Assembly: GCA_001460835.1 (NCBI GenBank)
Contig: CYKH01001882.1
Span: 5,190 to 27,128 of the forward strand
Reading direction: 5' to 3'
Source of the DNA: Bodo saltans
Taxonomy: Eukaryota; Euglenozoa; Kinetoplastea; Eubodonida; Bodonidae
DNA: 21,939 bases
The notes beneath the pieces are model-generated. The model did no database searches. It was not told the origin of the DNA and was given only the letters and a program-made list of their open reading frames with translations. Position numbers and translations under genes: made by a program. Each line of letters starts with the position of its first letter. Positions within the stretch are counted from its first letter, which is position 1. Positions 907-19,472 of this stretch are shown here, piece after piece.

Positions 907-1180
907 ATGGTAAGCTTTTTGCTTCGCGTAGCACTCGCTACTTTTTTGTTGATGTTCGCTGTGACACCCATGACACTTTGCACCGCCTCCCGTGGCAGTG
1001 CGACGACAGAGTCTGTCATGTACGTGTTTGGTGACATCCACCTCGACACCTTCTACCGTACCTCTATGGCCATCGACGATAACAACACCACGCGCGCCGA
1101 GCGAGCCTACCGGACATTCCAATGATGAGCCTCACAAGATGGGAATAGTGTGATGCTGATTGCAGGAGATTTCTTGCGCC

Positions 1181-1601
1181 AACAACGCCTCCGCTCACCC
1201 TGCACTGCCCCATCTTGTCAGCGGCTTTGTGGAGACCGGTATTATGTCTCTTGAGCAAATGCAAAGCTTCTCGCAATGCGGATTCTACGGCACGAACCCA
1301 ACTGGTACCAATCTGAAAGTACTGGGCGATAAACACGGTAATTTACAGTGTGGAGCAAAAGGGATTTCAAAGCACCGGTGGAGATCCCTGTGGGCAGTTT
1401 GCGTGGATGGAGGAGCAACTGAACGACGCGACGCTGACGAACCACGTGTCATGATCCTTGGCCACATCATCCCCCAAGCAACCAAGTGGAACAGCACGTA
1501 CCTCGACCTGATGAAGAGCTACACCAGCATTATCACGTCGCGTTCGGCCACACGAACATGTTCACCTTCATGGCCGAGTCTGACCACGTCGCTCCACCGC
1601 T
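1181..1601 (+). repeat. Direct repeat copy 1 (421 bp) inside the phosphodiesterase locus
   Basis: Matches 1689-2112 base for base as far as I can read, except that it lacks one TGG triplet (copy 1 reads cgcgttcgg, copy 2 cgcgtggttcgg), which removes the Trp before FGHTN. It runs from the codons for NNASAH to those for HVAPPL. It is joined upstream directly to GDFLR, missing the segment that precedes copy 2. Confidence 0.93.
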
Positions 1602-1688
1602 AAAATGAGTGTCGTGGTGCACCCGAATTACTTCTCGTTGGTCAAGGGAAATGAAGATTGCGTTCCGAATTACAAATTTAACGCAGTG

Positions 1689-2112
1689 AACAACGCCTCC
1701 GCTCACCCTGCACTGCCCCATCTTGTCAGCGGCTTTGTGGAGACCGGTATTATGTCTCTTGAGCAAATGCAAAGCTTCTCGCAATGCGGATTCTACGGCA
1801 CGAACCCAACTGGTACCAATCTGAAAGTACTGGGCGATAAACACGGTAATTTACAGTGTGGAGCAAAAGGGATTTCAAAGCACCGGTGGAGATCCCTGTG
1901 GGCAGTTTGCGTGGATGGAGGAGCAACTGAACGACGCGACGCTGACGAACCACGTGTCATGATCCTTGGCCACATCATCCCCCAAGCAACCAAGTGGAAC
2001 AGCACGTACCTCGACCTGATGAAGAGCTACACCAGCATTATCACGTCGCGTGGTTCGGCCACACGAACATGTTCACCTTCATGGCCGAGTCTGACCACGT
2101 CGCTCCACCGCT
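1689..2112 (+). repeat. Direct repeat copy 2 (424 bp) inside the phosphodiesterase locus
   Basis: Second copy, 508 bp downstream of copy 1 (511 bp at its right end). The 87 bases between the copies (1602-1688) encode the family segment with GNED and PNYKF that normally lies just upstream of the repeat. The duplicated unit was therefore most likely 1602-2112, with the 5' part of the first copy deleted. Confidence 0.93.
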
Positions 2113-2961
2113 GTTTGATGTCCCTGGAATCACACCTCGAAATGGGAACATGCCAGCTTACTTGAAAGTACACTTCGCCGATCAAGGGGCCGGTGGTGGC
2201 GCTGCGCTGAATACGAGTCAATGGACAGTGTCGCAGATCGTGGAGCGATACCTTGACGACTCCAACCCACCGAGCAGTACTGCACTTGGGTGGGTGACCG
2301 GGAGCTCCTTCCCGCAGGACTTTTTGTTCTATCCTCTGACGACCACGCAAGGACTATCAGACTACGCGCAAGAATTACTTCCAAAACCTCATCATTCGAA
2401 TGAATGGCTGCAATTTCAGAGTTTTTACTTTGGCGGAGTGACGATGACGGAGATGACGAATAGAGAGAAGGCGAACGTGCTGTGCAAAGTTATTACCCAC
2501 AAAGCTTCAGACTACGAAGCGTGCAAACAGCAGTACGCGTAACATGCGAGAGAGAAAGAGGGAGGTTTGCACCTCAATGATTTTTTGTTCGTGTGACCAC
2601 TAACCATTTTGTAACCAATTGTTTTCTTGTGCGAAGTTGCTGAAGCTTTTTTTTGTTTGATTGTTTGTTGTTTATCTTTTACATTGTGCCCCAAACGAAA
2701 CGCCGAAAACGAACAACGGCCATTTTCGTCGAAGACTTTTTTTAAAAAACTGCATTACCCTGTATCACAAGGCCATGCCTTTTTAAAAATTCTTAAGAAA
2801 TTTGTGACGTCGCAACCCTTTTTGTTCGTGTGTGTTTTGTTTACGCACGTAAAACCATGTTTTGGCCGCAGAGAAAGAGCAGCGTGCCGCAACAGCGGAG
2901 GAAATACTTTGCTTGAGCTTTTTTTTTTTGTTGTTGTTTTGGGGATGCATACATGAAATTG

Positions 2962-2983
2962 CTCACTCTCACTCTCACTCACT
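2962..2983 (+). repeat. Short CTCACT-type microsatellite
   Basis: CTCACTCTCACTCTCACTCAC-like repeat in the 5' flank of the receptor-like gene. It is pyrimidine-rich and may serve as part of the mRNA processing signal; that role is inference. Confidence 0.6.
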
Positions 2984-3034
2984 TTGCTTTTTCCCCATTC
3001 GTTGATGAAAATTTACATTTCAAACAAATTTAGA

Positions 3035-3078: not shown

Positions 3079-3083
3079 CAGTG

Positions 3084-4520
3084 ATGTCGACCAACGTGCT
3101 TCCGTACACCACTGCCACTCAGCACATGTCACTAGGTTGCATTGTTTCCAGTGCGCTTTCCTCAATCGTATTGCTTGATGTGCTCTTCACATTCATTGCG
3201 TTTCGAAACCGGTTAGACTGCTGTTTCAATCGGTTTATCCTCATTTTTTGCGCGTTGCAACTTTTGCAATGCTTGCAGAAGTTGACTTTTTCCGGCATGA
3301 CCATCGTGAATACTGGTTTGCCATTTGTCGCGTGTGACATTAATGCATCGCTGGATCAGTTTTTGGATTTTACGTCCATTTGTTTTCTGATCGCGTTCTT
3401 CATCGGGATGAGCAACCCTCGGCGGTTCTGGGACAATCGGACGTGGAGTCGGCTTGTGTACTTTATTGCGCCGTTTCTCGGACTCTTTTCGTTGGCGATG
3501 TTATGGATACTTCTTGCTGATCGTGTTCGTGGAGTGACTTACAACGATGCTCCGTTTTTCAAGCAAGACTTGGCTTGGTGCTGGATTCCGAATACTCGTG
3601 ATGCAGATCTTGAAGTCGTCAAGAGTGTCGATGCGTTGCGTACCGTTCAAATGTTGTTTGGCTACGCACCAACCCTACTTGTCATCGCAGCTGCCACGTA
3701 CTCGTATTTTGCGCAACGATGCAGGACTGGTGAAACGTGGCTAGGGAAGGGCATTGTGTTGCGTCGATTCCTAGGCGTGTCTGTTGCTCCGATTTTGATT
3801 TACGTGCTGGGCTTGCCGATTCGAATTTCGTTTGCAGCGAATGCGAACACCATTGCGATCGTCATCTCCACCGTATATCCACTTACTGGGGCGATTATCG
3901 GCATTGTGTTTTTATGGACAGAGGATGGTTTGACTTGGGTGCCGCGACTCGTGTGGCGACGGCTGTTTTGCACAGACGATAGGATACCCAATGAGCAGCA
4001 GTCCGAAGGAGCCGATGATGATGTTGTTGCGGTGCGCTACGATGGCATTGCTGCAACCGCAGTTCAATTGTTATCTCGCAACAGCAGCGGCTTCAGCAAC
4101 AATGGTCTCGCCGCGGACGAACATTTGTCGGCGACGTATTCAGAAAGCGGCGGCTATGGTGGAAGTGAGTTTCTCATTGGGCGCGAAAGCGAGGGACTAC
4201 ATCCACAACAACATCGATCATCGACGCCTCAACGCTCATCCGCCAGGCAGTCCGGATTGCACATGACCCAAGTTCAAGATTCGTGGCTCCACTCTGAGGA
4301 AGCAGTTCCTACCTCTTTTACAGCAACGCTGCGGGCAATGATGTGCGATGCAGCCGTTGGTCAGCATGTCATATCGTCTCGAACTGGACTGCATTATTAC
4401 GACGCGAGGTACGGCAGAGTGACAAACGATGACGAGACCTGCTCTGTGGACAGTGAGCATTTCGACAACGGTCGGCGCCTGCACCAAGCCAGCAGCAGTA
4501 TGACGGTTCTTGCAGAGTGA
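3084..4520 (+). CDS. Seven-transmembrane receptor-like protein (cAMP-receptor-like GPCR type)
   Basis: 478 residues from the ATG at 3084. Seven hydrophobic helices are visible at about residues 15-40, 50-69, 88-109, 123-146, 184-210, 227-250 and 254-278. Cys84 lies just before helix 3 and Cys166 (in the WCWIP motif) in the loop between helices 4 and 5, matching the disulfide pair and the WCWI signature of Dictyostelium cAMP-receptor-like (class E) GPCRs. The ~180-residue C-terminal tail is hydrophilic and rich in Ser, Gln and His, as expected for a phosphorylated cytoplasmic tail. No signal peptide is seen, and the N-terminus is short. The predicted site is the plasma or flagellar membrane. 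Topology is clear from the sequence; ligand and G-protein coupling are unknown. It could also be an orphan seven-helix protein outside the true GPCR superfamily. Confidence 0.75.
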   Translation: MSTNVLPYTTATQHMSLGCIVSSALSSIVLLDVLFTFIAFRNRLDCCFNRFILIFCALQLLQCLQKLTFSGMTIVNTGLPFVACDINASLDQFLDFTSICFLIAFFIGMSNPRRFWDNRTWSRLVYFIAPFLGLFSLAMLWILLADRVRGVTYNDAPFFKQDLAWCWIPNTRDADLEVVKSVDALRTVQMLFGYAPTLLVIAAATYSYFAQRCRTGETWLGKGIVLRRFLGVSVAPILIYVLGLPIRISFAANANTIAIVISTVYPLTGAIIGIVFLWTEDGLTWVPRLVWRRLFCTDDRIPNEQQSEGADDDVVAVRYDGIAATAVQLLSRNSSGFSNNGLAADEHLSATYSESGGYGGSEFLIGRESEGLHPQQHRSSTPQRSSARQSGLHMTQVQDSWLHSEEAVPTSFTATLRAMMCDAAVGQHVISSRTGLHYYDARYGRVTNDDETCSVDSEHFDNGRRLHQASSSMTVLAE

Positions 4521-4939
4521 GGGATTTTCTGATGTTGCTCGGTGAGCAACAAGAAGAAAAAAATGCAAAAACAAAGAAAAATGATGTGATGAATGGTTTA
4601 CTTGTATCCGCAAAAGAAAGTTTGTACCCGCTGGAGGAGATAAATGGTGTATTTGTTCCCTAATGAGAAAATCAAATCAAAAAAAAACAATCTGTGAGTC
4701 CTACACTCCCCTCAAATAACAACACTTCATGTCGCACTGGTGAAACAATCAACACAACGGAACATGTGTTTGCATGTTTTTTTGTCATGCCTTGCTTTTT
4801 TTGTGTGTGCCCTCCAATTGAAGAGAAATTGTTGCACCCTTTTTCTTATTCGCGCTTTGTTTGTTTGTAATGGCCCTTGTTGTCTCTCCCTGATTTGATA
4901 AATTCAACTTGAGAAGAGGAGATCTTACCCAACCAAGCT
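4521..4939. other. Intergenic region with trans-splice signals
   Basis: A-rich 3' flank of the receptor gene (about 4553-4580, 4666-4690), then T-rich tracts (4775-4803). A CT-rich block at 4878-4895 is followed by AG at 4912-4913, the likely spliced-leader acceptor for the nuclease gene at 4940. No gene seen. Confidence 0.55.
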
Positions 4940-5641
4940 ATGAAGAAAATCAGCCACCCTAGCGGAAAACTGATCACCTTCAACAGTCAATGGCATCAGT
5001 ACTCCATGGACGGATGCGGCACCCTTAAGTCCGTCTCCAAAGTGCTCGATAAACACTTCCCTTTCGACGAAGCACGCGTTTCTTCGATCGTGAGTGGAAA
5101 AACAGGTCAAACCCCGGCCGAGGTGACTGCTGGATGGAAACGGCAAGCGGTTCTCGGCAAGAACATCCACGCGTACATTGAGGCAAAGCTACGAAACGAG
5201 CCACCACCGGTTGTCCCCGCCGCATCACCGATGTTAGGCCTTGCTGGCACTATCGATTTCCTTGGAAGAAACAAGCGCACGGGTGCGATTTTAGTGGGCG
5301 ATTGGAAAACAAGTGGCTCTGTGACATCCTCGTTCCGCTTCGGTTCTTTTGAGACCCCTGCCATTGGCATGCTTTCCCACTTGCCGAATGCAAAATTGTA
5401 TCGGTACGCGATGCAGATTATGATTTACGGCTTCATGCTGCGACTCGAGGGGTACGATTCCATGTTTGGTCCTGAGCTGCTCACGAAACCGATTGAGTAC
5501 GGCATTATTCAAATGTCCAAGACAGAAACCGGCGATGTCGACTTGGAATTCAAAAAGGTGTGTGATAGTACCATTTTGCCGCTAGAGGGGGAGATGGGCG
5601 TCGATGAGCTTCTGCGCGCTGTGATCAGGGGAGGCATGTAA
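4940..5641 (+). CDS. RecB/MGME1-like PD-(D/E)XK nuclease
   Basis: 233 residues, complete. The PD-(D/E)XK core is readable: a helix with His77 and Glu81 (GKNIHAYIEA), Asp106 in GTIDF, the Asp121-Trp-Lys123 dyad in GDWKTS, and the RecB-type Gln159-x3-Tyr163 motif (QIMIY). This order, and DWKTS in particular, is that of MGME1, the mitochondrial single-strand DNA exonuclease, and of related small nucleases of large DNA viruses and phages. The protein probably degrades or trims single-stranded DNA; the substrate is inferred from the family. The N-terminus (MKKISHPSGK) is not an obvious mitochondrial presequence, so location is open. The N-terminal SVSKVLDKHFPFDEARV segment is typical of the small stand-alone members. 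The start is the first ATG after the probable acceptor at 4912. The fold is well supported; orthology to MGME1 is less certain. Confidence 0.8.
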   Translation: MKKISHPSGKLITFNSQWHQYSMDGCGTLKSVSKVLDKHFPFDEARVSSIVSGKTGQTPAEVTAGWKRQAVLGKNIHAYIEAKLRNEPPPVVPAASPMLGLAGTIDFLGRNKRTGAILVGDWKTSGSVTSSFRFGSFETPAIGMLSHLPNAKLYRYAMQIMIYGFMLRLEGYDSMFGPELLTKPIEYGIIQMSKTETGDVDLEFKKVCDSTILPLEGEMGVDELLRAVIRGGM

Positions 5642-6039
5642 AAGAATCATGTGTGTCGTCGTCGGGTGTTGTTGGGGATATCTCGCTCAATAATCGCGCA
5701 AAGGGCCTTTTCTTTTTGTTCCAATAGTTGGTCTGCGTGCAGAGAGCATGCATTGGCAACAAAGAAAAACCTGGGAAGGCCGCAAGAGAGCTTTGAGTGT
5801 AGCGGATGTGGAAGCAAACCAGAAACGAGGCTCATAGAAAAGAAGCGGCACTACCCACGCTCAACGCATTTTCTCTGCTAGCGACTTCTCATCAAAAAAA
5901 CAAACAAAAAAACAACCTGTGCGCAATACACTTGCGAAATTTTCTTCGAAGTATCCCTTTCTGTTTGTCCCCTAAATTACAACAAACATCATTTTTTTGT
6001 AAAGATTCATTTCCTCTATCAAAAGAAACACTTCGATTG
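5642..6039. other. Intergenic region
   Basis: 398 bases between the nuclease and the protease. A 76-codon frame at 5651-5881 has no recognisable features. A T-run at 5992-5998 with AG at 6003-6004, then a second pyrimidine tract at 6006-6020 with AG at 6024-6025, are the probable trans-splice signals for the gene at 6040. Confidence 0.55.
6006..6025 (+). promoter_or_regulatory. Pyrimidine tract and probable spliced-leader acceptor
   Basis: TTCATTTCCTCTATC followed by AG at 6024-6025, 15 bases before the ATG at 6040. It argues that translation starts at 6040 although the frame is open upstream to about 5806. Confidence 0.5.
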
Positions 6040-7797
6040 ATGGGAGGCTCATCCTCAAAAGATGATTCCCTGGGTGACGACGCCGGCGGTGACGATGCCT
6101 CTCCCACCCGCAACTTCGGCAATTTTGAAGCTGCGGCCAACGGAGCGAACAGTACTACGTCGAACAACGGCCTATTGCTCGCATCGCCATCTCTAGCCGC
6201 CCAGCGGAAGTATGAAGACGAAATCACGAAGAACGTTGGTTTGGAGAACTTTGGCAACACTTGCTACTGCAACTCCGTCATTCAATTACTCTACTCCTGC
6301 ACTGCACTGCGCCATCGTGCGCTGATTCTTCACGAACAATTTGTGGCGGCGATTGCTGCCGCTGGAGGTGGACCGCCACCAAAGAATAGGAGCAGAGGCT
6401 TCCACGGCGGCGTAAACCTGAGACACGAGAAGGCTAAGACACTTAACCAAAGCTACGACGTGTTCAGTTTTCTTTTCTTTTTCTTTGAAAGACGGAGACA
6501 CACGTCGGCCAACACAGCAACACCACCCACGTCGCCTGGTGTTCTTAGTAGCAGCGCAACGACGCCAGGAACAGTCGGTAGTGGACCACTGCTCTCGGCA
6601 GCCACCGCCACGTCGACGCCGATGCAAAACGTCATACCAGTGCCAGCCGTTGTCGCGTCGCCAAATGATTTTGTCCAACGCGTAAAGAAAGAGAACATCG
6701 TGTTTCGCAATGCGCAGCAGCAAGATCGCGTGCTCAAGCGGTACAAGCAGCAGTTAACAAACTAGCTTTTGCTCTTTCGAGAAGAAGTCGGACCTCCCGC
6801 CAACGGTGGAGGCGGTGGCCCAGGAGCGTCAATGTCAAGCGTTTCCAGCGACAAGAACAACAACTCTCTCTCGTCTTCGTCAGTTGCCGTCGGTGGGGGT
6901 GATAGGAACAATTGCGCCAGCAGTCGCACCACTACACCCATTCAGGATATCTTCGAAGGATCTTTTGCTTCGGAGACGAGTTGCATGGAGTGCGAAACGA
7001 ACACCGTCCGCTTCGAACGATTTTTTGATCTCAGCCTAGAGATTGAACAAAATTCGTCGCTAAGTCGATGCATTCTGAACTTCAGCTCACCTGAGTTTCT
7101 TATTGGAGCTGAGAAATTCCGCTGCGACGCGTGCTGTGCATCATCGCCGGCCCGTCGCTGCGTCCGTGTGCATCAAGCTCCCGCGAGAGCGATGCTGATT
7201 CACCTGAAACGTTTCAAATTTCAAGAAGAGAGACAAGTGTTCAAGAAACTCTCGTGGCGTGTGACCCTACCAAACGAGCTTACGGTCCACCATAGCTGCA
7301 CCAACGGTGGGCATGAGCACATGGGGGGCTGCTCTAGCGTGCACAACAACAACAACAGTAGTAGCAGCTCAGCGCAAGAAAAATCGCGTTCTGGTGAGGG
7401 TCACACCAACAGCAGCAACACGACACGAAGTAGTGTATTTCGCCTGAAAGGCTTTGTGGTGCACCAAGGAAGTGGTCCAAATCTTGGTCACTACATTTGT
7501 TGCGTGCGCGCGTTTACACCATCAGGCGAACCAACCGATCGATGGAAGAGATTCGATGACCCAACCGATCGATGGAAGAGATTCGATGACGACCTTGTGC
7601 ATGATTTATCTGAAAAAGAAGTGCAACAATACTTTGGCCTTGCAACAGGTGGTGCTGCAGCAAACAGCGGAGGGGCAGGTGACACAAGCGCGAGGAGAGA
7701 AGCTGTGCCGACACCACCACCGCCACCCGCGCTTAGTGCTTCGGATAGCCTTGTGAGCTCGTCCACGGCGTACATCTTGCTGTACGAACGAATGTGA
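6040..7797 (+). pseudogene. Ubiquitin-specific protease, USP12/USP46 type, with in-frame TAG
   Basis: Deubiquitinase of the USP (peptidase C19) family. The ATG at 6040 starts MGGSSSK, a possible N-myristoylation signal. Cys box GLENFGNTCYCNS (catalytic Cys75), QQQD at about codon 226, zinc-type pairs CMEC and CDACC, HLKRFK, His box with GPNLGHY (His484 counting every codon), the W..FDDD segment and a terminal YILLYE follow in USP12/46 order. The frame is uninterrupted except for TAG at 6763-6765 (codon 242), which splits it between Cys and His boxes; the phase is the same on both sides. The [AS]HEF that should follow QQQD is absent. A 30 bp in-frame duplication doubles the catalytic-Asp segment, and poly-Ser/Asn inserts are present. 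Product is either a readthrough-dependent enzyme, a pseudogene, or an artefact of a base error. Family assignment is strong; functionality is uncertain. Confidence 0.8.
7531..7590 (+). repeat. Exact 30 bp tandem duplication in the USP gene
   Basis: 7531-7560 and 7561-7590 are identical and in frame, so PTDRWKRFDD occurs twice in a row. The duplicated element is the strand carrying the W..FDD motif that follows the His box in USPs. Confidence 0.97.
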
Positions 7798-7901
7798 AAA
7801 AAAAAAATGATGACTGCAGAAAGGAGAATCTCATTTCGAACCGAAATTTGTTCTTGATTAAACGTGATGATAATTCGTGGGCGAGATTGTACAACATGTG
7901 C

Positions 7902-9428: not shown

Positions 9429-9658
9429 ACAAGAATATAGCGTAAAGATTTTTTTTGTTTTCACATTATGACACCTCGCTCTGCTATTCTTGATGTTTGT
9501 TATTCTTACCCCTTCAATATTTGCAAGTTAAATAAAAACAGCAAAAAAGGTTACCACTCTTTTTCTAAAAAGAGAAGTAAACCTAACAATCTCAATTTCC
9601 TTTTGGCGAACGCACAATCAAAATTTTGTAGAAATCTCTCGACAAGTACCACAAAGAG
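9429..9658. other. Intergenic region with acceptor signals
   Basis: AT-rich spacer. Pyrimidine tract at 9553-9566 with AG at 9571-9572, and a nearer candidate AG at 9630-9631 or 9645-9646 after CT-rich bases, precede the ATG at 9659. No gene seen. Confidence 0.5.
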
Positions 9659-10483
9659 ATGGCAACGTCAACCAAAGATCGTCAAAAGCTTGCAACGAAC
9701 GTGAGCAGAATGATCGGAGCTTTGAAAGTCAAAGCAACCGAAGCTGGTATTAGTCCTCCGCAGCCGTCTTTGACGCTACCGAATAGGAACGCTGCACTTG
9801 CGACATCGCTTGGCGGTGGCGGTGCTGGTGGCGGTAGCAACACGTTTCGAACGCCGTCACGAGATCGTTTCTCGAGCCCTGGGTCGATGAGCAACTTTTC
9901 TTCTGACGAAGACAATCCTTTTGATGGCAAGAGCTTCAACCGAAGCCGCCGTGACTCGGGTGACCGAAATTCACAAGCGTCGCTGTTGGACCTGCAAGAC
10001 AATGCTGCAGACGTGTTCAACCAGCCTGGCTTTGGGGCGTTGTCCACTCAGAACCAGCCGAAGTCGTCCGTCCAACCGTCCACCATTGCGCGCAAACCGC
10101 AGCAATCATCATCTGCACATGAAGTCGCCAAACCAAAGCCTCAGCGGCGAGGAGATGAACCCCAACAGCGACCAGTTGCAGCACAAGCTGGAGAAGGCAA
10201 TCGCAAGACTCCTCATCGCTCGTCGAGCAGAAACGAACCCAGCAATAGTTCGAGCTCCACGAACAACCGCCAGCAGCGTCCTGTAGATGACGCCTCACGC
10301 GGGCGAAGTTCGCAACAAGACCCGAAATCGACGCCACCGATGTCTGCGAGGAGCGACACACCATTAGCTATGAAACAATCATCATCTCAACAGACGTTTC
10401 AGCAGCAGCAGCAGCAGCAGCCTCGTGGGAGAGATGAAGCACGCGGCCCCAAGCGAGAGGAGCAGTCAGCGGCGAGGAGATGA
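9659..10483 (+). CDS. N-terminal frame of the coiled-coil protein gene (274 codons)
   Basis: As the sequence stands, translation from 9659 ends at TGA 10481-10483, shortly after entering the second repeat copy. The product would be only the disordered Ser/Gln/Pro-rich leader, including a Q7 run (10400-10420). It overlaps the downstream frame by about 50-60 bases. Confidence 0.6.
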   Translation: MATSTKDRQKLATNVSRMIGALKVKATEAGISPPQPSLTLPNRNAALATSLGGGGAGGGSNTFRTPSRDRFSSPGSMSNFSSDEDNPFDGKSFNRSRRDSGDRNSQASLLDLQDNAADVFNQPGFGALSTQNQPKSSVQPSTIARKPQQSSSAHEVAKPKPQRRGDEPQQRPVAAQAGEGNRKTPHRSSSRNEPSNSSSSTNNRQQRPVDDASRGRSSQQDPKSTPPMSARSDTPLAMKQSSSQQTFQQQQQQQPRGRDEARGPKREEQSAARR

Positions 10484-10784
10484 ACCCCAACAGCGACCAG
10501 TTGCAGCACAAGCTGGAGAAGGCAATCGCAAGACTCCTCATCGCTCGTCGAGCAGAAACGAACCCAGCAATAGTTCGAGCTCCACGAACAACCGCCAGCA
10601 GCGTCCTGTAGATGACGCCTCACGCGGGCGAAGTTCACAACAAGACCCGAAATCGACGCCACCGATGTCTGCGAGGAGCGATACACCATTAGCTATGAAA
10701 CAATCATCATCTCAACAGGCGTTTCAGCAGCAGCAGCAGCCTCGTGGGAGAGATGAAGCACGCGGCCCCAAGCGAGAGGAGCAG
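10141..10784 (+). repeat. 325/319 bp tandem duplication, frame-shifting
   Basis: Copy 1 is 10141-10465, copy 2 is 10466-10784, directly abutting. They differ at three single bases that I see (gttcgcaac/gttcacaac, gcgacac/gcgatac, cagacg/caggcg) and in the CAG run (Q7 versus Q5). A 325 base offset is 1 modulo 3, hence the frame break. Confidence 0.95.
10400..10420 (+). repeat. CAG trinucleotide run (Q7; Q5 in the second copy)
   Basis: Seven CAG codons in copy 1 and five in the corresponding place near 10725 in copy 2, a length polymorphism between otherwise near-identical copies. Confidence 0.9.
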
Positions 10785-13700
10785 TACCCTGCTGCCGATC
10801 GGGAAGCGGAAAAGAGTCGCCGGCAGCAGCTGAACAATGACAACGGCGCCCCGGCAGATGTGCGTCGCTCTGCACCGCGACGCACTGAGTCACCGAGGCC
10901 TTCTGGGGGAGAGGTACGAAAGGAGGACGATGGCCAACGTAGCCGCTCCACGCAGCGGCGAATGCAAGATGCAGCTCGACGTGCCGCGGGCGGAAATTCA
11001 ACCACCACACCGCGATCCAACGCACCTATGGCTTCACAGGATCGTGCTGGAGGGACTCGCGACAGCAAACCATCATCGAGTAGCAAACCGCAACAACAAC
11101 AACAATCCAGCAGCCCCCCATCACCTAGTCAAGAAGCGTATCAACTGCCACGCTCTCTTGGCGGAGGCCCTGCTGGTCAACGCACGAGTCCCGATTCTGG
11201 TCTTGTCACCCCCGTCGCCCCATCACCTAGTCAAGAAGCGTATCAACTGCCACGCTCTCTTGGCGGAGGCCCTGCTGCTGGTCAACGCACGAGTCCCGAT
11301 TCTGGTCTTGTCACCCCCGTCGACGAAGCATCGGCAAAACAATACAACAACAACAACAGTAGCAGTGGCCCCGCTAAGCGATCCTCACCCCAAACGCAGC
11401 CTCTTTCTGTTTCCCAGCAACCTGCCGTCCCTTCGGCTGGTGCTCGCGTGAGCTCACCTGCTGTTGGAATTCGACGAAAGAACCCCAACAACACTTCCAC
11501 CACCACTGGCAACAGCTCGTCTACGAATTCGAAGAACACACAAAATCAGTCTCCTCCTGCTGGTGGACTTACTGTTACGAACAACAACCGGAATCCGTCC
11601 CCCACACCACGACCTGGTGGTGGTGGTGGTGGCATCGCCGCCCTGTCTGGTGTCACAAAAGCGATCGCAACCCTCTCTCAGAACACAACACGACACCTTC
11701 TCGGTGGTGGTGGTCGCAGCATCAGTCCGCAAGAAGTCGACAACACTCTTACCCCTCGTGCACTTGCACGCCTCGGCCAGCAATCTGCCGCAAGTCAAGC
11801 ATTCTCTCTCGCAGATTTTGTGAAGGAGACAGCGTCTCAATACGATTTCAACCGTGCACCGTCACGTATGAGCCTTGGGGGGTCACAGTATGGAGGCAGC
11901 CAAGACGGCCGCAGTGGGCAAAATACTCCTGTGCAAATGCGAGGCGCGAATCTCCTTGACAGCCTCAGCGAACAGAAGTATCCTGCTCGTGCACCTCCCA
12001 CGTCCACCGCCGGGATGATTGATAGCACTTGGCTTGACCAAGCATCGAAGCATACTACGTCGAGTGGAATTGAGAAAACAGAGAAGAGTGTTCGCCTCCG
12101 CATTCATCATGCAGCAATGTTCCGACCTCGTGTGTGGTTTCTGAACAACATCCTTCCGATGCTTCGCCAACACCAGCTCAAAGAATTCGCGCTGAGAAAG
12201 CGTAAGTTGTTTGTCGAGTGCGCCGAGCCCGTGTTCCGAGTGAGGATTCAGAAACAAGCGAGCCAGGCACTTGAATTGTTAAAGTGCGAATACGCCGAGA
12301 ACGCTGACCGATTGGATCTTGCCCGCGCGTCGATGTTATGGCGGACACAAGTGAAAGGTGCCTTTGACCGCCTCGTGCAGCAGCTTCGCGTCGAGCAAGT
12401 TCGCAAGGTGGAGGCTGTCCAGCACACTGCTGAGGTGGAAGTCGCCAAAGGCGCATTAGCTCATTTAGAAAAGACATCCTTCTCGTACCTGCACCTTCAC
12501 ACCCAGTTCGGAGAGGCTCTCCTTCGCCGCACCAAGGAACTTTACATCTACTACTTCGGCATCATGGCAAGCATGGGCGTCAAGGAGGAAAAGGAACGCG
12601 CGTCAATTGCCTCCGAACAGCGTTTCCAACGCCTTCAAATTGAGGTCGAGCGACTTCGATATTTTATCCAGCACCTCGAGATTGTAGAGTACGAAAACAT
12701 CTTGAAGTACTTTTCGGGTGAGAAACGGATTCTTGAGAGCGAACTCCGCTTCAAGCCCAAGAGCAGCAATACTGCCGGACATCTCTCTGGGAGGATGTCT
12801 CAAAACAGTGGCGCTGCTTGGAAGAGCTCTACCGCGAGCTCGACTGCCATCCAATCTGCCTCCGCAACTCCAGTGAACTTTGGCGGCAGTCAACAGCAAC
12901 AGCGCTCTACCAATGCATCGCCTTTGATGGAAGACTACAATCGTCAACAGCAGCAACACCAGCAACTTCGTGATTCTGCCATGACGCCCCACGCTTCGAA
13001 TTACAGTCGCAACAGCGACTATCCCTCTGCCTACCGCTCTGCGAATGAAACACCTATTCGTCAACCAGCGCTTTCTCAACATGAACCAACACCACAGCGC
13101 GCGCCGTTCCCATTGGATGCCCTTGAGCGCCAGCAACAGTACCGTCGCTCGCAGAACCAACAACTGGAGCATGCGGTTGCGATTGAACGTGAACTTCAAG
13201 GCACCCCTGCATTTGCTGGACGAAGCACGACAACGGCTTACGACTCCGACCCTGCCGCTCGTGCGTTCCTGCCGACGAATAATCTTGCTAGTGGTCGCTA
13301 CGACGGAACGGCAACGCCAGTCAGCAGTCGCTATCTTGCAAACCAATCCACGTCGTCGTTGTCCGTTTCTGGTGCTCCTCCCGCACAGCATCAATTCCCC
13401 TCAAGCTACCAGCAGTCCAACCCCATGCAACAACTGCAGCAGTTCAAAGATCAGCAAGTGGTGGCCGCCCAGCGCCAAACTCTTGAGAGGATGGCCCCGC
13501 CTGTCACATCGAGCGCCACTCAGCTCCCCATCACGATGCGTTCCTCCATGAACAACAATTCTTCGTCGCTCCTCGCGCGAAATAACTCCTCATCATCCAG
13601 TCGTCTTGGGAAAGAGCTTGAGCATGAAGAAGCGAACTTTGGTGGCAACAACAATTTGTTACCTCCCCTTCGAAGGTCGACTGGTGGTGGTGGCCCCACT

Positions 13701-15329
13701 GGCGTCGTCATGGGAACAGAAGATCGTCGTAAAAGTGATGAGGAGGAAGACGTGCCTCTCCCTGCCCCTATTCGAGGAGGTCATATTCTACTCCCCCGCA
13801 TTGACCCAGCTGTTCGTAAAGCACGCGAAAACTCGGAAGGTGTGGTGCAGGGGATTATGCTGGTGAACAAAGTGATGGGAGGAGGTGGTGGTGGTGCAGT
13901 TGGAGGAGGCAATAAATTCCTTCCGCCTCTCACCAACTCGGTGGCCTCCAGTGCTGCAGTCGCTGCAGATACCACGGGCGTGGTGGCGTCAGTCGGTCGT
14001 ATGCTGCTAGGCAGCGACGCGCTTCCCGCGATTTCGTCTTCATCAGGTGCAAGCTTCCGCGACGACCTTATGAGTGTCCCTGAAGCCGCTATTGATGATC
14101 GCAGAGTGCGTGGAGCGGAGCTTGACACGGCAACCGCGTTACTCCTCATGCTGCACAAATCTGGTTCCGAGCGAGTCGCGGATGACGAAAGCGGTGTGCG
14201 CAAGAGTCTTCTTTTCTACGCGCAAGAAGACAAGAAAGAAGCAGTGTCACGCGCAGCTGCAGCTCGAACGAATCGCTTCTACTCCACTAGAACTGAGAAG
14301 GTCATCGTTGAGGAGCAAGAGCTTCGCCGTGAACTCCAGCAGCAGGAAGCCTACGAATTCGCACTCCAAATCCAACGCCGCCAGTGGGTGGAGTACTTCT
14401 TCCTCTCTACCGAAGAAGCCAGTGAACGCGAGCGCATTGTTGGCATGTCTCACTTGTCTCGTGCGATTGTCGAAAAGAACACGAAACAAGAGTTCGGCAT
14501 CACATGTCTCATGCAACACCAAGTACTTGCGATGCAACACTTGCACTCGCATCAACGATGGTTTTTCACGGACGTGACGTTCCCTACAGCGGCAGGACTG
14601 TCGGTGCACCAAACAGAGCGACGAGAGCGGAATAAAATTCTGATGCAAATGGAAAAGGAGGGTAATTTGTTGACCAAAGATGCCAGGGAGCGTCGACAAC
14701 ACAAGGCACGTTACAACAGTGGCAGTGGAGTGGCAGTCAATCCTGTCGAAGTGGAAGCACTTACTTCAGTAGAGGAAGTCCACCGCCGGAACTTGGAGCG
14801 ACAATTTGCCCTCATCCGTGATAAGTTTGTGTTCGAGAACTGGGAGGAGCCCATGCAACGAGGCGTGCTGATCGTCGCGAGGGAGCGATGGTTCCGTGAC
14901 CTTGTACGACCCTCACAACACAGAATTTCCATCACCGTCTCCGACACAGCGCAACGCAATGTACTCTGGAAAGAAGAGGCGCAAGAGCGCGCAGCACTTC
15001 AAGCTGCCATCAAACGTGGGATGTACGAGGCTGGATATCAGGATATTGTGGCGTTCGAACAGCGCGAATTCCGGAAGCTGACGATGGCGTACCTTAAAGA
15101 ACGACGCCAACGAGAAACACGCGAGCGTGAGTCCCAGTCCAAGAAATTTCAACTTGAAAAGTACCTCCAGCTGCAGGCAAGTGGGAACAGTGCATCGTCA
15201 CCACCACGCAGTGGGTTAGACGGAGCCCTTGGGCGGTACATGGCAGCAACTGCAGGACCAGCGGATGGAGTTCGCAGTACGCCGCTTCCTGACTACTCTG
15301 CAATGATTGTTCGACCAAAACGAAATTAG
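10434..15329 (+). CDS. C-terminal frame of the coiled-coil protein gene
   Basis: Same gene, shifted frame. The first in-frame ATG is at 10434 but lies inside repeat copy 1 read out of frame, so it is unlikely to be a natural start, and no polypyrimidine/AG signal stands immediately upstream. It carries both charged helical blocks of the protein. Confidence 0.6.
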   Translation: MKHAAPSERSSQRRGDEPQQRPVAAQAGEGNRKTPHRSSSRNEPSNSSSSTNNRQQRPVDDASRGRSSQQDPKSTPPMSARSDTPLAMKQSSSQQAFQQQQQPRGRDEARGPKREEQYPAADREAEKSRRQQLNNDNGAPADVRRSAPRRTESPRPSGGEVRKEDDGQRSRSTQRRMQDAARRAAGGNSTTTPRSNAPMASQDRAGGTRDSKPSSSSKPQQQQQSSSPPSPSQEAYQLPRSLGGGPAGQRTSPDSGLVTPVAPSPSQEAYQLPRSLGGGPAAGQRTSPDSGLVTPVDEASAKQYNNNNSSSGPAKRSSPQTQPLSVSQQPAVPSAGARVSSPAVGIRRKNPNNTSTTTGNSSSTNSKNTQNQSPPAGGLTVTNNNRNPSPTPRPGGGGGGIAALSGVTKAIATLSQNTTRHLLGGGGRSISPQEVDNTLTPRALARLGQQSAASQAFSLADFVKETASQYDFNRAPSRMSLGGSQYGGSQDGRSGQNTPVQMRGANLLDSLSEQKYPARAPPTSTAGMIDSTWLDQASKHTTSSGIEKTEKSVRLRIHHAAMFRPRVWFLNNILPMLRQHQLKEFALRKRKLFVECAEPVFRVRIQKQASQALELLKCEYAENADRLDLARASMLWRTQVKGAFDRLVQQLRVEQVRKVEAVQHTAEVEVAKGALAHLEKTSFSYLHLHTQFGEALLRRTKELYIYYFGIMASMGVKEEKERASIASEQRFQRLQIEVERLRYFIQHLEIVEYENILKYFSGEKRILESELRFKPKSSNTAGHLSGRMSQNSGAAWKSSTASSTAIQSASATPVNFGGSQQQQRSTNASPLMEDYNRQQQQHQQLRDSAMTPHASNYSRNSDYPSAYRSANETPIRQPALSQHEPTPQRAPFPLDALERQQQYRRSQNQQLEHAVAIERELQGTPAFAGRSTTTAYDSDPAARAFLPTNNLASGRYDGTATPVSSRYLANQSTSSLSVSGAPPAQHQFPSSYQQSNPMQQLQQFKDQQVVAAQRQTLERMAPPVTSSATQLPITMRSSMNNNSSSLLARNNSSSSSRLGKELEHEEANFGGNNNLLPPLRRSTGGGGPTGVVMGTEDRRKSDEEEDVPLPAPIRGGHILLPRIDPAVRKARENSEGVVQGIMLVNKVMGGGGGGAVGGGNKFLPPLTNSVASSAAVAADTTGVVASVGRMLLGSDALPAISSSSGASFRDDLMSVPEAAIDDRRVRGAELDTATALLLMLHKSGSERVADDESGVRKSLLFYAQEDKKEAVSRAAAARTNRFYSTRTEKVIVEEQELRRELQQQEAYEFALQIQRRQWVEYFFLSTEEASERERIVGMSHLSRAIVEKNTKQEFGITCLMQHQVLAMQHLHSHQRWFFTDVTFPTAAGLSVHQTERRERNKILMQMEKEGNLLTKDARERRQHKARYNSGSGVAVNPVEVEALTSVEEVHRRNLERQFALIRDKFVFENWEEPMQRGVLIVARERWFRDLVRPSQHRISITVSDTAQRNVLWKEEAQERAALQAAIKRGMYEAGYQDIVAFEQREFRKLTMAYLKERRQRETRERESQSKKFQLEKYLQLQASGNSASSPPRSGLDGALGRYMAATAGPADGVRSTPLPDYSAMIVRPKRN
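11116..11322 (+). repeat. 102/105 bp in-frame tandem duplication
   Basis: 11116-11217 and 11218-11322 are near-identical; the second has one extra GCT codon (GPAAGQ instead of GPAGQ). The frame is kept, so a 34-residue element with SQEAYQLPRSLGGGP is present twice. Confidence 0.95.
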
Positions 15330-15901
15330 TTGAAGTGAGAGTCAAAATGCACGACGACGACGATGGATTATGTTCATGTACATTGTAAAATCTGTGCTTC
15401 TCCCTTTCCCTTTATGTGCAGTGTGTCTGTGAAAAGCCAACACGTGAGTGCGATGTTTTTATATTCCTTTGGTTCTTCCCCCAAAAAACACCACAACCCG
15501 TTCTTCCATTGGCACTGCTGTGACCTTTTTCAACAAGACGCAACAAAACAAAACGTGCCATGAATCAAACAGCACAACGAAAAAAAATGTTATTGAATTC
15601 GAACGGAGCTGTATTACCCCTTACCCATCTTACAGGAAGAGAAAAGGCAAACCAATGAAAGTGATCCTTTTTTGATTCCTTTTTTTTTTTGAGATGTTTC
15701 CACACGGTTATTGGGGTAGAGAGTCAATGATGTGTGGATTGTATTTGTACGGCAGTTTTTGTTTTGTGACTTGCCAATATGCACCACAACCCAATAAATC
15801 ATGATACCAATTCTATTTCCTTGAAGCTGAAGTGTGTTTCTTTTTTTGTCAGTAAGAATTGCTGAAGACAGAAGCGGCGCTTTATTCTGAGAGTTTAAGA
15901 A
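15330..15901. other. Intergenic region with acceptor signals
   Basis: 572 bases without a supported gene. Short frames at 15363-15563 and 15448-15675 lack any protein-like features. T- and A-rich tracts lie at 15576-15586 and 15666-15690. The last tract leads into the acceptor before the export-factor gene. Confidence 0.55.
15837..15852 (+). promoter_or_regulatory. Polypyrimidine tract and probable spliced-leader acceptor
   Basis: TTTCTTTTTTTGTC followed by AG at 15851-15852, about 50 bases before the ATG at 15902, an almost ideal trans-splice acceptor. Confidence 0.65.
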
Positions 15902-16996
15902 ATGCTTTCCAACACCGGCGGATTTCGGAGTCGCAACGTCGCAAAAACGATGGAGCGCCACCGCAGCGTGGCAACGGTTGCCACGACACTGTGCCACCAT
16001 CTTACCAAAGGCGGAAAGTGCCCACTGTACACATTCGAACAAACCCTTCGCCGTGAACTAGTCAATGCAAAGGAGAAGGAATTAAAGAAACAGGCCATTG
16101 AATTGTTGAAACTGGAGCATGAAATGGCTCAGGACGAAACTACTGCGGCGACAGTGTCACTGGTGGATTTTTCTCCATCGCAAGAGAATATTGCGAAAGT
16201 GATTGCCGCGGTCAAGCAAGAGAAGGCGTACCAAGACTGGTCACTCGACCGCGATGTTGCGAAACGTTTACTGGAACTGAAACGATACTCGTGCCCTTAC
16301 TCCCATCTGGTTCAGACGGAAGTTGCTCCTTCAACTTCCAACGCAACAACAGAGGGTCAGTCACCGATCGTCAGCATCGTAGAATGTGCAAAGGTGTTTC
16401 GTCAGTTCTCCGTCTTCCAGAAGTTGATTGCTCTCGCCATGCTTGCAGGCTCTGTTGTGGTTCCCTGCCGCCTTGTATTGGACGTGGAGGACCTGCTGCG
16501 AGGCAGGAAACGTCGTGCGTATGAAAAAGAACGTGCGGCTCAACCTAAAGCGACCGACGATGATGAGGAGGAGTCCGACGAGGAAGAAGATTTTGAACCA
16601 TCTGAAGAGGAGGTGGAGCGAGAGGGGTCACGTCTAGTGCGCGTGGCTATCGTGGACGCTGCAAAAGCATCACTGAATTTGGGATGCCTTCCCGTATTGC
16701 TGTCCCACGTCGTGCAACACTTCGACCTTTGCCTGGGTGATCACAACGATGAACCCACCAAGCACGAAGACCGTGCATCGTCGTCGTCTTCATCAGCCAA
16801 TCCGGAAGCAAGTGCGACGTTCTTGTGGTCATTAAAACGTCGGCGCAATAGCATTCAGGAACTCTTGCAAGCCACCATCGACCTAGCCACAGCTGAAAGC
16901 CACCAAGCACGAAGACCGTGCATCGTCGTCGTCTTCATCAGCCAATCCGGAAGCAAGTGCGACGTTCTTGTGGTCATTAAAACGTCGGCGCAATAG
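15902..16996 (+). CDS. N-terminal frame of the Mex67-like gene (364 codons)
   Basis: Runs from the ATG at 15902 to TAG 16994-16996; the last ~31 codons are repeat copy 2 read out of frame. It holds a basic N-terminus, a helical middle part (about 16330-16500) and an acidic Asp/Glu run at about 16556-16620. No recognisable domain by itself. Confidence 0.6.
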   Translation: MLSNTGGFRSRNVAKTMERHRSVATVATTLCHHLTKGGKCPLYTFEQTLRRELVNAKEKELKKQAIELLKLEHEMAQDETTAATVSLVDFSPSQENIAKVIAAVKQEKAYQDWSLDRDVAKRLLELKRYSCPYSHLVQTEVAPSTSNATTEGQSPIVSIVECAKVFRQFSVFQKLIALAMLAGSVVVPCRLVLDVEDLLRGRKRRAYEKERAAQPKATDDDEEESDEEEDFEPSEEEVEREGSRLVRVAIVDAAKASLNLGCLPVLLSHVVQHFDLCLGDHNDEPTKHEDRASSSSSSANPEASATFLWSLKRRRNSIQELLQATIDLATAESHQARRPCIVVVFISQSGSKCDVLVVIKTSAQ

Positions 16997-17044
16997 CATT
17001 CAGGAACTCTTGCAAGCCACCATCGACCTAGCCACAGCTGAAAG
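16755..17044 (+). repeat. Exact 145 bp tandem duplication, frame-shifting
   Basis: 16755-16899 and 16900-17044 are identical on reading, with no spacer. 145 is 1 modulo 3, so the second copy is read one frame off and runs into TAG at 16994. No microhomology is visible at the junction (the base before copy 1 is C, before copy 2 is G). Confidence 0.97.
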
Positions 17045-19472
17045 TAAGAAGCAACAACGAACAGAGAAGGCCAGCAGCGGCAACAATAACGTGCAGCAGA
17101 AGACCTCCCTGCGGCATCTTCTTAGCGCGGCAGGCATCCCCAGAACGATTAGTGAGAAGGAGTTAGACCTCAGCAGCGCCTCACGCTGCAACGAACTTCT
17201 TGACGTTCTGAACATTGTATGGAAGAAATGGCTTGTGCGTCCGTCGTCGTCCTCCTCAGGCACCAGCAATTCCTCCCAACAACCGTTGCGCTTTTTATCC
17301 CTCCGTAGGTCTGCGCTGTCAACCGCGGAGCACTTGGTTGCGCTGCTGAAAAAATCCAACCTACACGAAGACCTTGTCGGCCTTGACATGAGCGGCAATA
17401 AACTTGACTCCCTCCGTTTCCTGTTTCAACTTCGTGCCGACTTTAAAGAACGCCTGTTGTTCCTATGGTTGCAGGAAAATCCTATCACACGCAAGCCTGA
17501 GTACAGAGAGCAAGTTCGCGCAACGCTCCCTCGGCTCGTATGCCTTGACGGCGAGTCCATCCGCCGCGCACCACTTCAATTACCCCACCCACGTGCCCCA
17601 TCCCTCGCCAGAAATATCGATCCACAAGAATACGCCGAAGTCCTTGCTGTGGTGGATCGTTTCTTGTACGCGTGGGAGTCCCAACAAGTCCCCCTACCAC
17701 CCATCGCCTTCAAGCCTAGCGATCGCAAGTTGCCGTTCCACCCCGCGTTGACAGAAGAGGCGCGCCAACTGAGGAAACGCCTTCGCAATGGAGTTTCTGA
17801 GCTGGAGCAGAGCACAAATGAGGAGGATGCATTGTTCACGCGAGCTTCATCCTTTGCGATAAACGCAAAACCCAAGAAAAAGAAGAGCGCCAACGTTGAC
17901 AGCAATGAAGATGACAGCGACGATGATGATGGTCATGACGGGGATCTCGAGGAGGACCTTGACGAGAATGTTTTTGCGAAACGATACATGCATCCAGAGT
18001 GCACCTTCAGCCTCTCCACCGCGCCTGGATGTGGTTGGTTCGATGCCGATAGCACATCATGCGTGACAGAATTAGACACGCATCTTGTCGAAGTCGCTCG
18101 CACGCGTGGCGTGAACGACGCCAACAACAGCAACAACGGCACCACCTCAAGCAGCAGCAGTAAAAAGAAGCTCCTCGTGCTTTCGAAACAAGATATGAAT
18201 GAACTTCGTGTGATGGATGTGAGCATCCGGAATCACCACCGCAATCTTATCCTTGGAAAGCCGGCTCTGTACCTCATGGTGAAAGGGCCTGTCAATTGTT
18301 TTACCGCATACCGCAGCACCCTCTACCCTGAGAGAATGATTGTGGATCACCACCTCGATGCGTGCGTTCCGCAGGTGACGTTGGTGGGGGATGAAGACAT
18401 GTCAGGGCTTGCTGCGAAAGAAAAGGAGGCGATGGGCGACCGGGAGCCAGTGAAGGGCCCCGCACCCTCGAAGAAGAAAATTGCTCGCGATCCGTATGCC
18501 GCCCGTGAACTTCCCGCTGCACTTCGAGCCCGCGCAGCAAAAGCCGCAGCGGAAGGCCCCGCTCCTGCCCCAGCCCTACAGATCAGCCAGTTGTTCCTCG
18601 GTAGCGCGACGCTGAGCTCCTCGACGCCTGCTCGCAAGCCGCTTGCGTTTCTCGTGACCATCCACGGGAAAATGTCATGGAGAAGCCCCACGATGAGCGC
18701 GGATCACAGCATCACATTGTGCTATGACCGAACGATTGGCCTCGTGCATCGCCCAGTGCCCACCAAAGGCTCACTTCCCTCAAAATCGCTTCATAAAGTG
18801 CCACGTTTTGTTGTGGCATCGGATATGATCTTCCTTCGCCCTGCTGCTGACGTTGCCTCTTCCCGTAGTAACAATAATGATGTATTGTTTGAAGCACGTG
18901 CAGAGGATCGGTTGGATGGTGTTGCTGTTGAATTCGGCCTTGACGGCACCAGCGACAATAAAGCATTTGCCCGCAGCGTTGCAGAGCGCGCCACAAGTGA
19001 CGCCGCGTTGCATCACGTGCTGACTGCTCTGCTCGATGTAAAAACGAAGCAAACCAATAAAGACGATGACAATGGCGAAGGTCAAATTGGATTGTCGAAC
19101 GAAGAGCTAGTAATCCAACAGAAAAAGTCAGAGTTCTGCGGTGAGCTGCAGCAGAAAGAGTTAAAGAGGTCTGAGTCCTCTCGACAGCTAGACGGGACAA
19201 ATGACCCTGTGTTGATGCAAACCCGTGCTGCGTCTACCACCAGCAATTTCCTGCCCATCCGCACGGCCTTTACTGTGCGCCCATCGTTCTCTGCGTTTGA
19301 CATTATCGAATTTGCAGACGCCACCGCCACCGACGAGGCGTCGCGCAAGAATAATGAATCAGGCGATGATGATCTCCTCAGTGCCGACAAAGAGATCAAA
19401 ATTGAACTTGCCCAAGTTGATGCAGCTCTTGCGGAAGCAAATGCATTTCACACAACGTCGTTCAAGTGGTGA
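16968..19472 (+). CDS. C-terminal frame of the Mex67-like gene (LRR and NTF2-like domains)
   Basis: Open from within repeat copy 2 to TGA 19470-19472. There is no in-frame ATG until 17388, which falls inside the LRR block, so this part cannot be an independent gene with an intact LRR domain. It holds a second acidic run (about 17900-17967). Confidence 0.65.
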   Translation: MWSLKRRRNSIQELLQATIDLATAESKKQQRTEKASSGNNNVQQKTSLRHLLSAAGIPRTISEKELDLSSASRCNELLDVLNIVWKKWLVRPSSSSSGTSNSSQQPLRFLSLRRSALSTAEHLVALLKKSNLHEDLVGLDMSGNKLDSLRFLFQLRADFKERLLFLWLQENPITRKPEYREQVRATLPRLVCLDGESIRRAPLQLPHPRAPSLARNIDPQEYAEVLAVVDRFLYAWESQQVPLPPIAFKPSDRKLPFHPALTEEARQLRKRLRNGVSELEQSTNEEDALFTRASSFAINAKPKKKKSANVDSNEDDSDDDDGHDGDLEEDLDENVFAKRYMHPECTFSLSTAPGCGWFDADSTSCVTELDTHLVEVARTRGVNDANNSNNGTTSSSSSKKKLLVLSKQDMNELRVMDVSIRNHHRNLILGKPALYLMVKGPVNCFTAYRSTLYPERMIVDHHLDACVPQVTLVGDEDMSGLAAKEKEAMGDREPVKGPAPSKKKIARDPYAARELPAALRARAAKAAAEGPAPAPALQISQLFLGSATLSSSTPARKPLAFLVTIHGKMSWRSPTMSADHSITLCYDRTIGLVHRPVPTKGSLPSKSLHKVPRFVVASDMIFLRPAADVASSRSNNNDVLFEARAEDRLDGVAVEFGLDGTSDNKAFARSVAERATSDAALHHVLTALLDVKTKQTNKDDDNGEGQIGLSNEELVIQQKKSEFCGELQQKELKRSESSRQLDGTNDPVLMQTRAASTTSNFLPIRTAFTVRPSFSAFDIIEFADATATDEASRKNNESGDDDLLSADKEIKIELAQVDAALAEANAFHTTSFKW

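What the first reader, a model, noticed from the sequence alone, without database searches (positions are those of the whole stretch)
907..19472. Cluster of local direct tandem duplications inside coding regions, three of them frame-breaking
Five abutting or near-abutting direct duplications sit inside genes: ~510 bp (1602-2112 unit), 30 bp (7531-7590), 325 bp (10141-10784), 102/105 bp (11116-11322) and 145 bp (16755-17044). None lies in intergenic DNA. Three break the frame. Copies are identical or differ at a few positions, so they are recent or allelic. Explanations: haplotypes or reads concatenated by the assembler; a lineage with unusually frequent short tandem duplication; or heterozygous inactive alleles in a diploid or polyploid nucleus.
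Basis: partly seen in the sequence, partly recalled or inferred. Interest (0 to 1): 0.8.

Follow-up and report, generated by a model that had tools for sequence, protein, structure and literature searches.

The report
Probably false tandem duplications from assembly
Stretches of several genes appear twice in a row in this genome sequence, most likely because overlapping pieces, some of them the two versions of one gene, were laid end to end during computer assembly, so genes that look broken here may well be whole in the living cell.

Summary
The five duplications are really in the sequence and not chance. Units: 511 nt (copy 1 lacks the first 87), 30, 325/319, 102/105 and 145 nt; the 511, 325 and 145 units break the frame. 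The window is from the free-living kinetoplastid Bodo saltans: both published PFR2 primers match its assembly once each, facing each other over 2985 bp. Such units are not confined to the window: 13 more abutting units in 188 kb, in 12 of 22 sampled stretches; 0 in 10 random controls.

Best reading: most units of 140 nt or more are false duplications, i.e. unmerged overlapping contig ends, some carrying two alleles. Pooled frame-breaking units differ by 18 synonymous and 1 non-synonymous change (neutral expectation 28%, p = 1.6e-9), so the copies diverged inside working genes before being placed side by side. Without locus L016 this falls to 3 of 4 (p = 0.07). The published route (Velvet, SSPACE, GapFiller, IMAGE) fits. 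Against: no N at junctions, and no reads to check. The in-frame 30- and 102/105-nt units may be genuine protein repeats.

The parts
1181..1601 (+). copy 1 of the 511-nt unit in gene 2 (acid-sphingomyelinase-like phosphodiesterase paralogue); lacks the first 87 nt of the unit
1602..2112 (+). copy 2, full 511-nt unit; breaks the frame relative to copy 1; 3-nt indel and no substitution between copies
7531..7560 (+). copy 1 of the 30-nt in-frame unit (10 aa, PTDRWKRFDD) in the ubiquitin hydrolase gene
7561..7590 (+). copy 2 of the 30-nt unit, perfect
10141..10465 (+). copy 1 of the 325/319-nt frame-breaking unit in a long gene (9659-15329)
10466..10785 (+). copy 2; 2 synonymous and 1 non-synonymous difference plus a 6-nt CAG-repeat indel
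11116..11217 (+). copy 1 of the 102/105-nt in-frame unit (34 or 35 aa) in the same gene
11218..11322 (+). copy 2 (105 nt, one extra codon)
16755..16899 (+). copy 1 of the 145-nt frame-breaking unit in gene 15902-19472
16900..17044 (+). copy 2 of the 145-nt unit, perfect; the long downstream frame resumes in this copy

Best explanation
The long units (140 nt or more, including the 511, 325 and 145 units of this window) are most likely false duplications made during assembly of the Bodo saltans short-read genome. Two contig ends covering the same stretch were placed head to tail and the gap between them closed without recognising the overlap, giving left flank + U(end of contig A) + U(start of contig B) + right flank. 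Where the two ends came from different alleles the copies differ as alleles do (synonymous changes, in-frame codon-repeat indels); where they came from the same or identical alleles the copies are perfect. The genes that look frame-broken by these units are then single-copy there in the cell. Shown: the units, their presence in 12 of 22 sampled stretches elsewhere, the synonymous bias of the pooled set, the lack of frame preference, the species. Taken from print: the assembly route. Inferred: that gap closing or scaffolding made the joins. The two short in-frame units (30 and 102/105 nt) may be genuine protein repeats and are not firmly covered by this explanation.
For: The seven frame-breaking units of at least 140 nt (L027 left out) differ by 18 synonymous and 1 non-synonymous change (expected 28% synonymous, p = 1.6e-9); the same changes scored in the two wrong phases give 1 of 19 and 0 of 19 synonymous. 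The 607-nt unit of L016 has 15 of 15 synonymous; it is not a natural repeat of that multi-PAS gene, whose natural repeats match the unit at 25-42% protein identity and lie about 122-131 residues or multiples of that away, against about 202 residues and 100% protein identity for the duplication. Indels between copies in the window's 511 and 325 units are 3 and 6 nt. Unit length is frame-blind for units of 140 nt or more: 2 of 10 divisible by 3. Junction overlap is 0-2 nt (exceptions under evidence against). No abutting unit above 607 nt was called with periods searched to 8000, against a 500-bp main library. Units cut conserved genes: an OGG1-type glycosylase (L026, 523 nt) and a family 47 glycosyl hydrolase (L014, 157 nt). 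L026, L016 and the window stretches 9600-11600 and 15900-19472 each matched only one place in the held assembly. B. saltans has at least two alleles per locus: biallelic and single-allele knock-outs (PMC9544060, passages). Adjacent placement of overlapping haplotype contig ends is a described failure mode, median identity 98.1% (PMC2864568, passages).
Against: No N run lies at any junction: every N run in the loci held starts at base 1 of its locus, whereas false duplications are most often separated by a gap (PMC9516828). Kelley and Salzberg write that duplications inside one contig are rarely false. 15 of the 18 synonymous changes come from L016; without it 3 of 4 are synonymous, p = 0.07, and the window itself gives 2 synonymous and 1 non-synonymous. 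The perfect units (145, 157, 224) carry no divergence and fit a recent real duplication equally well. NHEJ repair is reported in B. saltans, so a biological route exists. No second-allele contig was found for the loci searched. A simple end overlap does not predict the 87 nt missing from copy 1 of the 511 unit, nor the 4 unmatched nt at the L007 junction and 2 at L024.
Confidence: 0.75

Rival explanations
1. Real recent tandem duplications made in the cell by end joining or fill-in of staggered breaks, fixed or heterozygous, at an unusually high rate; many genes are genuinely disrupted on at least one chromosome.
For: Units occur outside the window (13 in 188 kb); three long units are perfectly identical; most junctions are clean; B. 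saltans is reported to repair breaks by NHEJ (PMC9544060). Tandem copies that look genuine and older exist: a 75-nt in-frame array in L011 and an 80%-identical 369-nt pair in L029.
Against: A frame-breaking duplication that later diverges in place should collect mostly non-synonymous changes; 18 of 19 are synonymous, though 15 of these are from one locus. Scaling 4 long units (L008, L014, L016, L026; L027 and L029 left out) in the 178,338 bases outside the window and L007 gives about 660 such places in 29.3 Mb, a heavy load of broken genes. The clone-based B. saltans fosmids (0.403 Mb, 178 coding sequences) mention one disrupted gene, a beta-tubulin with a single-base deletion, in the passages I saw (PMC2621209); this is an argument from silence.
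Confidence: 0.15
2. Unequal exchange between the two homologues in the cell joined the two alleles in tandem, giving real heterozygous null alleles whose copies differ synonymously.
For: It would explain allele-like differences between adjacent copies without invoking the assembler; at least two alleles exist.
Against: It needs interhomologue joining with almost no homology at the breakpoints (0-2 nt) at several loci, whereas tandem duplications normally arise within or between sister chromatids (established knowledge), giving identical copies.
Confidence: 0.06
3. The short in-frame units (30 and 102/105 nt) are genuine protein repeats, independent of the long units.
For: In frame; the 102/105 unit lies in a low-complexity, serine/proline/glutamine-rich region. 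5 of 8 units under 140 nt are divisible by 3, against 2 of 10 longer ones (small numbers).
Against: The 30-nt unit doubles RWKRFDD inside the UCH domain match, a motif I recall as single in these enzymes; three other short units (37, 38, 70 nt) have lengths not divisible by 3.
Confidence: 0.55
4. Tandem duplication created introns: the extra copy is spliced out.
For: Duplications inside genes can make introns where the unit holds AGGT (recalled).
Against: No AGGT in the 511-, 325- or 145-nt units of the window. The B. saltans annotators assumed that introns are absent.
Confidence: 0.02

Closest known systems
False segmental duplication from haplotype mis-assembly, 'duplicated overlapping contigs' (Kelley and Salzberg 2010, PMC2864568; passages seen)
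   Same: Two contigs sharing the same stretch at facing ends are placed side by side, so the shared stretch appears twice with unique flanks; median identity 98.1%; sizes mostly under 2 kb.
   Different: Their cases lie on separate contigs and were shown with mate pairs; here the join is inside one gap-free contig, and no reads could be examined.
Heterotype and homotype false duplications (Ko et al. 2022, PMC9516828; passages seen)
   Same: Adjacent near-identical copies that disrupt genes; both a class with differing copies (607, 523, 325 and perhaps 303 nt) and an identical class (145, 157, 224 nt) occur here.
   Different: Their calls rest on read depth, k-mers, discordant read pairs and gaps; here the allele-differing class is argued from the synonymous bias, and no gap is present.
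Genuine in-frame protein tandem repeats
   Same: The 75-nt array in L011, the roughly 324-nt repeat in L027 and probably the 102/105-nt unit here.
   Different: The long units of the window are frame-breaking and two-copy.

Membership tests
False (assembly) duplication of overlapping contig ends | Near-identical copies adjacent, unique flanks on both sides | tested here: met
False (assembly) duplication of overlapping contig ends | Copies that differ do so as alleles of a working gene (synonymous changes, in-frame indels) | tested here: met
   Pooled 18 synonymous and 1 non-synonymous; without L016 3 and 1, p = 0.07; the window alone (2 and 1) is inconclusive.
False (assembly) duplication of overlapping contig ends | Assembly gap between the copies (typical, 'most often', not obligatory) | tested here: not met
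   No N run away from the first base of any locus held; the published route included gap closing with GapFiller and IMAGE, which could have removed gaps.
False (assembly) duplication of overlapping contig ends | Half or lower read depth and inconsistent mate pairs over the copies | not testable with these tools
   No reads available.
False (assembly) duplication of overlapping contig ends | Source organism has two or more alleles per locus | not tested
   Taken from print only: biallelic and single-allele knock-outs in B. saltans (PMC9544060).
Real tandem duplication by slippage or microhomology-mediated joining | Microhomology at the breakpoints beyond chance | tested here: not met
   0-2 nt in the units read; L007 and L024 have a few unmatched nt instead.
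Real tandem duplication decaying in place | Frame-breaking copies diverge neutrally (about 28% synonymous) | tested here: not met
   18 of 19 synonymous, mainly from L016.
In-frame protein repeat | Unit length divisible by 3 and open frame through both copies | tested here: met
   Only for the 30- and 102/105-nt units of the window; not for 511, 325 and 145.

The most novel reading that the evidence does not exclude
Bodo saltans really carries hundreds of frame-breaking tandem duplications of 0.1-0.6 kb on one homologue each, formed partly between homologues, so that a sizeable share of its genes is heterozygous for a null allele that is continually made and removed.
Probability: 0.1. Interest if true: 0.7.

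Novelty: not a real feature. Interest (0 to 1): 0.2.

Why it matters
B. [quoted passage not shown] If some 660 places (extrapolated from 4 long units in 178 kb) carry false duplications, then truncated, 'lost' or 'internally repeated' B. saltans genes need checking against reads. The synonymous-bias test used here needs no reads, and it gives a rough read-out of allelic divergence in a protist for which neither genome paper's main text uses a word beginning 'heterozyg'.

Tried and rejected
Genetic-code reassignment (in-frame TAG in the ubiquitin hydrolase): rejected. On the + strand, of 37 TAG, 22 TAA and 49 TGA codons ending ORFs of at least 150 codons, 2, 1 and 1 are followed by at least 150 further open codons, so no stop clearly stands out. 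Spliced-leader search for a kinetoplastid signature: nothing at up to 3 mismatches; a KMP-11 match (PF03037) gave the kinetoplastid assignment instead. Bacterial SSU family: no match. Eukaryotic SSU: not completed. DUF4833 protein against solved structures: no hit. L027 was first counted as a 293-nt frame-breaking duplication (8 synonymous, 3 non-synonymous), then left out of the pooled test because it belongs to a repeat of about 324 nt whose first spacing is about 31 nt shorter. The 22 rows became 18 units: two extra rows of the L011 array were merged, and L018 (438 nt) and L027 (324 nt) were not counted as abutting. L007 (303 nt, 5 synonymous, 0 non-synonymous) is in frame and was not pooled. 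L029 (369 nt, 80% identity, 3 synonymous, 15 non-synonymous in a frame with stops) looks non-coding and old; it was not pooled but is counted among the 10 long units. Units under 140 nt were not scored for synonymous changes, except the window's 102/105 unit, which has no substitution, and L024 (1 synonymous) and one pair of L011 copies, scored but in frame and not pooled; L012 has one difference, not scored. A natural-repeat origin of the L016 unit was tested and rejected. Junction overlap is confounded by indels or mismatches in the 325, 102, 607 and 303 units; 325, 607 and 303 were read by eye and 102. Searches for print on B. saltans assembly errors or duplications (listings only, 20, 15, 10 and 10 papers shown) showed no paper about them.

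Sample: 24 stretches were fetched; L006 and L017 were wholly masked and seven others in part, leaving 22 readable stretches outside the window (188,338 bases). Contigs were picked by round numbers, except C245 (L007), chosen because it matched the window, and C736 (L006), the window's own contig.
Full report
What is in the sequence. Three break the reading frame (511, 325/319 and 145 nt) and two keep it (30 and 102/105 nt). The first differs from the description in one respect: copy 1 (1181-1601) lacks the first 87 nt of the unit, which is complete only in copy 2 (1602-2112). Between copies there are no substitutions in the 511, 30, 102/105 and 145 units. The 325 unit has three substitutions and a 6-nt CAG-repeat indel; the 511 and 102/105 units each have one 3-nt indel. 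Random sequences of the same first-order composition gave no such duplication in 10 repeats, against 22 rows observed.

Where it comes from. The window is bases 5190-27128 of a 27,128-bp contig in an assembly of 29.3 Mb and 934 contigs. The assembly has one match to the kinetoplastid protein KMP-11. Two primers published for the PFR2 gene of Bodo saltans (read in PMC9544060) each match once, facing each other over 2985 bp on one contig; the paper gives the gene as positions 3455-6406 of its scaffold. I take the assembly to be Bodo saltans. The published B. saltans genome is 39.9 Mb in 2,402 scaffolds (N50 31.5 kb), made from Illumina 500-bp and 3-kb libraries with Velvet (k 41), SSPACE, GapFiller, IMAGE, ICORN and REAPR (PMC4728078, passages). 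That the held set is the part of this assembly in contigs of at least about 10 kb is inferred from the contig lengths seen.

Not peculiar to the window. I read 22 other stretches (188,338 unmasked bases) and found 13 abutting tandem units in 12 of them: 37, 38, 66, 70, 75 (array), 84, 157, 224, 293, 303, 369, 523 and 607 nt. The window's 5 in 21.9 kb is somewhat more than the average (P = 0.019, post hoc). The absence of intergenic cases in the window means little, because genes fill 84% of it (P = 0.42).

The discriminating test. If a frame-breaking duplication arose in the cell and then aged, the gene was already dead and differences between copies should be neutral. If instead the copies are two alleles of a living gene, wrongly or rightly placed side by side, their differences should be synonymous. 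I pooled the seven frame-breaking units of at least 140 nt after leaving out L027 (part of a natural repeat). Four carry no substitution (window 145 and 511, L008 224, L014 157). The other three (window 325, L016 607, L026 523) carry 18 synonymous and 1 non-synonymous substitution; the neutral expectation is 28% synonymous (p = 1.6e-9), and the same changes scored in the two wrong phases give 1 and 0 of 19. Weakness: L016 contributes 15; without it 3 of 4 are synonymous (p = 0.07). L016 encodes a multi-PAS protein, so I asked whether its unit is a natural repeat. Natural repeats in that gene match the unit at 25-42% protein identity and at spacings near 122-131 residues or multiples, while the duplication is identical in protein over 201 residues at a spacing of about 202 residues, out of register. 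The in-frame 303-nt unit of L007 shows 5 and 0 but is not diagnostic. L027, left out, shows 8 and 3.

Other properties. Among the ten units of at least 140 nt, two are divisible by three, so there is no sign of frame selection. Junction overlaps are 0-2 nt, so slippage or microhomology-driven joining is not indicated; L007 and L024 have 4 and 2 unmatched nt there instead. No abutting unit above 607 nt was called, in keeping with a limit set by the 500-bp library, though the stretches are only 10 kb long. Some units cut conserved genes: an OGG1-type DNA glycosylase (L026), a family 47 glycosyl hydrolase (L014) and a multi-PAS protein (L016). The L007 protein aligns to SMPDL3A in a clear piece (309-426 of the query to 186-310) and a weak one (45-114 to 28-99, 4 bits), which would leave about 108 more residues between them in the query; the 303-nt unit would account for 101 (the size comparison is mine). 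L016, L026 and the window stretches 9600-11600 and 15900-19472 each matched only one place in the held assembly, as did window 1-2500 apart from a 69-80% identical paralogue.

How it most likely arose. Identical 145- to 224-nt copies cannot both be unitigs of a k = 41 de Bruijn graph, because each k-mer has one place there; and a real tandem copy longer than the reads makes a loop that such assemblers usually collapse or break at (established knowledge of the method). The later steps, which extend contig ends with reads and join them across estimated gaps, can leave both ends extended over the same stretch. This is what Kelley and Salzberg call duplicated overlapping contigs (PMC2864568) and Ko et al. 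heterotype and homotype false duplications (PMC9516828). The absence of N at the junctions is a departure from the typical picture; gap closing would explain it, but I could not test this. The 87 nt missing from copy 1 of the 511 unit is not explained by a simple overlap. B. saltans has at least two alleles per locus (biallelic and single-allele knock-outs), so two alleles were available.

Gene 2. The unit at 1181-2112 lies in a paralogue of an open 555-residue acid-sphingomyelinase-like frame on another contig (L007). Matches to that protein change frame at corresponding points in both window copies, so this gene is either a pseudogene that was then duplicated or a poorly assembled stretch; the data do not decide. 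The paralogue carries its own, different 303-nt duplication.

Verdict. The long duplications are most likely not features of the organism (confidence 0.75). The short in-frame ones may be.

Noticed in passing
window 6724-6765: The ubiquitin hydrolase gene has an in-frame TAG (6763-6765) in a stretch of about 40 nt where the conserved AHEF residues would be expected after NAQQQD (motif recalled). A 33-nt piece of this stretch was found only here in the assembly at up to 3 mismatches.
   Followed up: partly
L018:3970; L014:4271: Further places where one stop codon splits two long ORFs in the same frame (1323 + 610 and 991 + 363 codons): premature stops or sequence errors.
   Followed up: no
window 19739-20782: Two ORFs in the same frame (19739-20254 and 20288-20782) separated by 33 nt; the first ends in TAG and a second TAG follows in frame: one interrupted gene or two very close genes.
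   Followed up: no
L027:8913-10000: A protein with a repeat of about 324 nt; the first spacing is about 31 nt shorter (293) and breaks the frame, perhaps a local collapse.
   Followed up: partly
L007:5159-5764: A paralogue of window gene 2 carries its own 303-nt in-frame tandem duplication with 5 synonymous and 0 non-synonymous differences and 4 unmatched nt at the junction.
   Followed up: yes
23 readable stretches of G000, window included: ORFs of at least 200 aa lie mainly on the + strand in 22 of 23 readable stretches (the other, L019, mostly masked, has none), although contig orientation in an assembly should be arbitrary; the contigs may have been oriented by gene strand.
   Followed up: no
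L011:8347-8850; L029:156-858: Tandem repeats that look genuine: a 75-nt in-frame array of about 6-7 copies in an ORF of at least 1846 codons, and an 80%-identical 369-nt pair in apparently non-coding DNA.
   Followed up: partly
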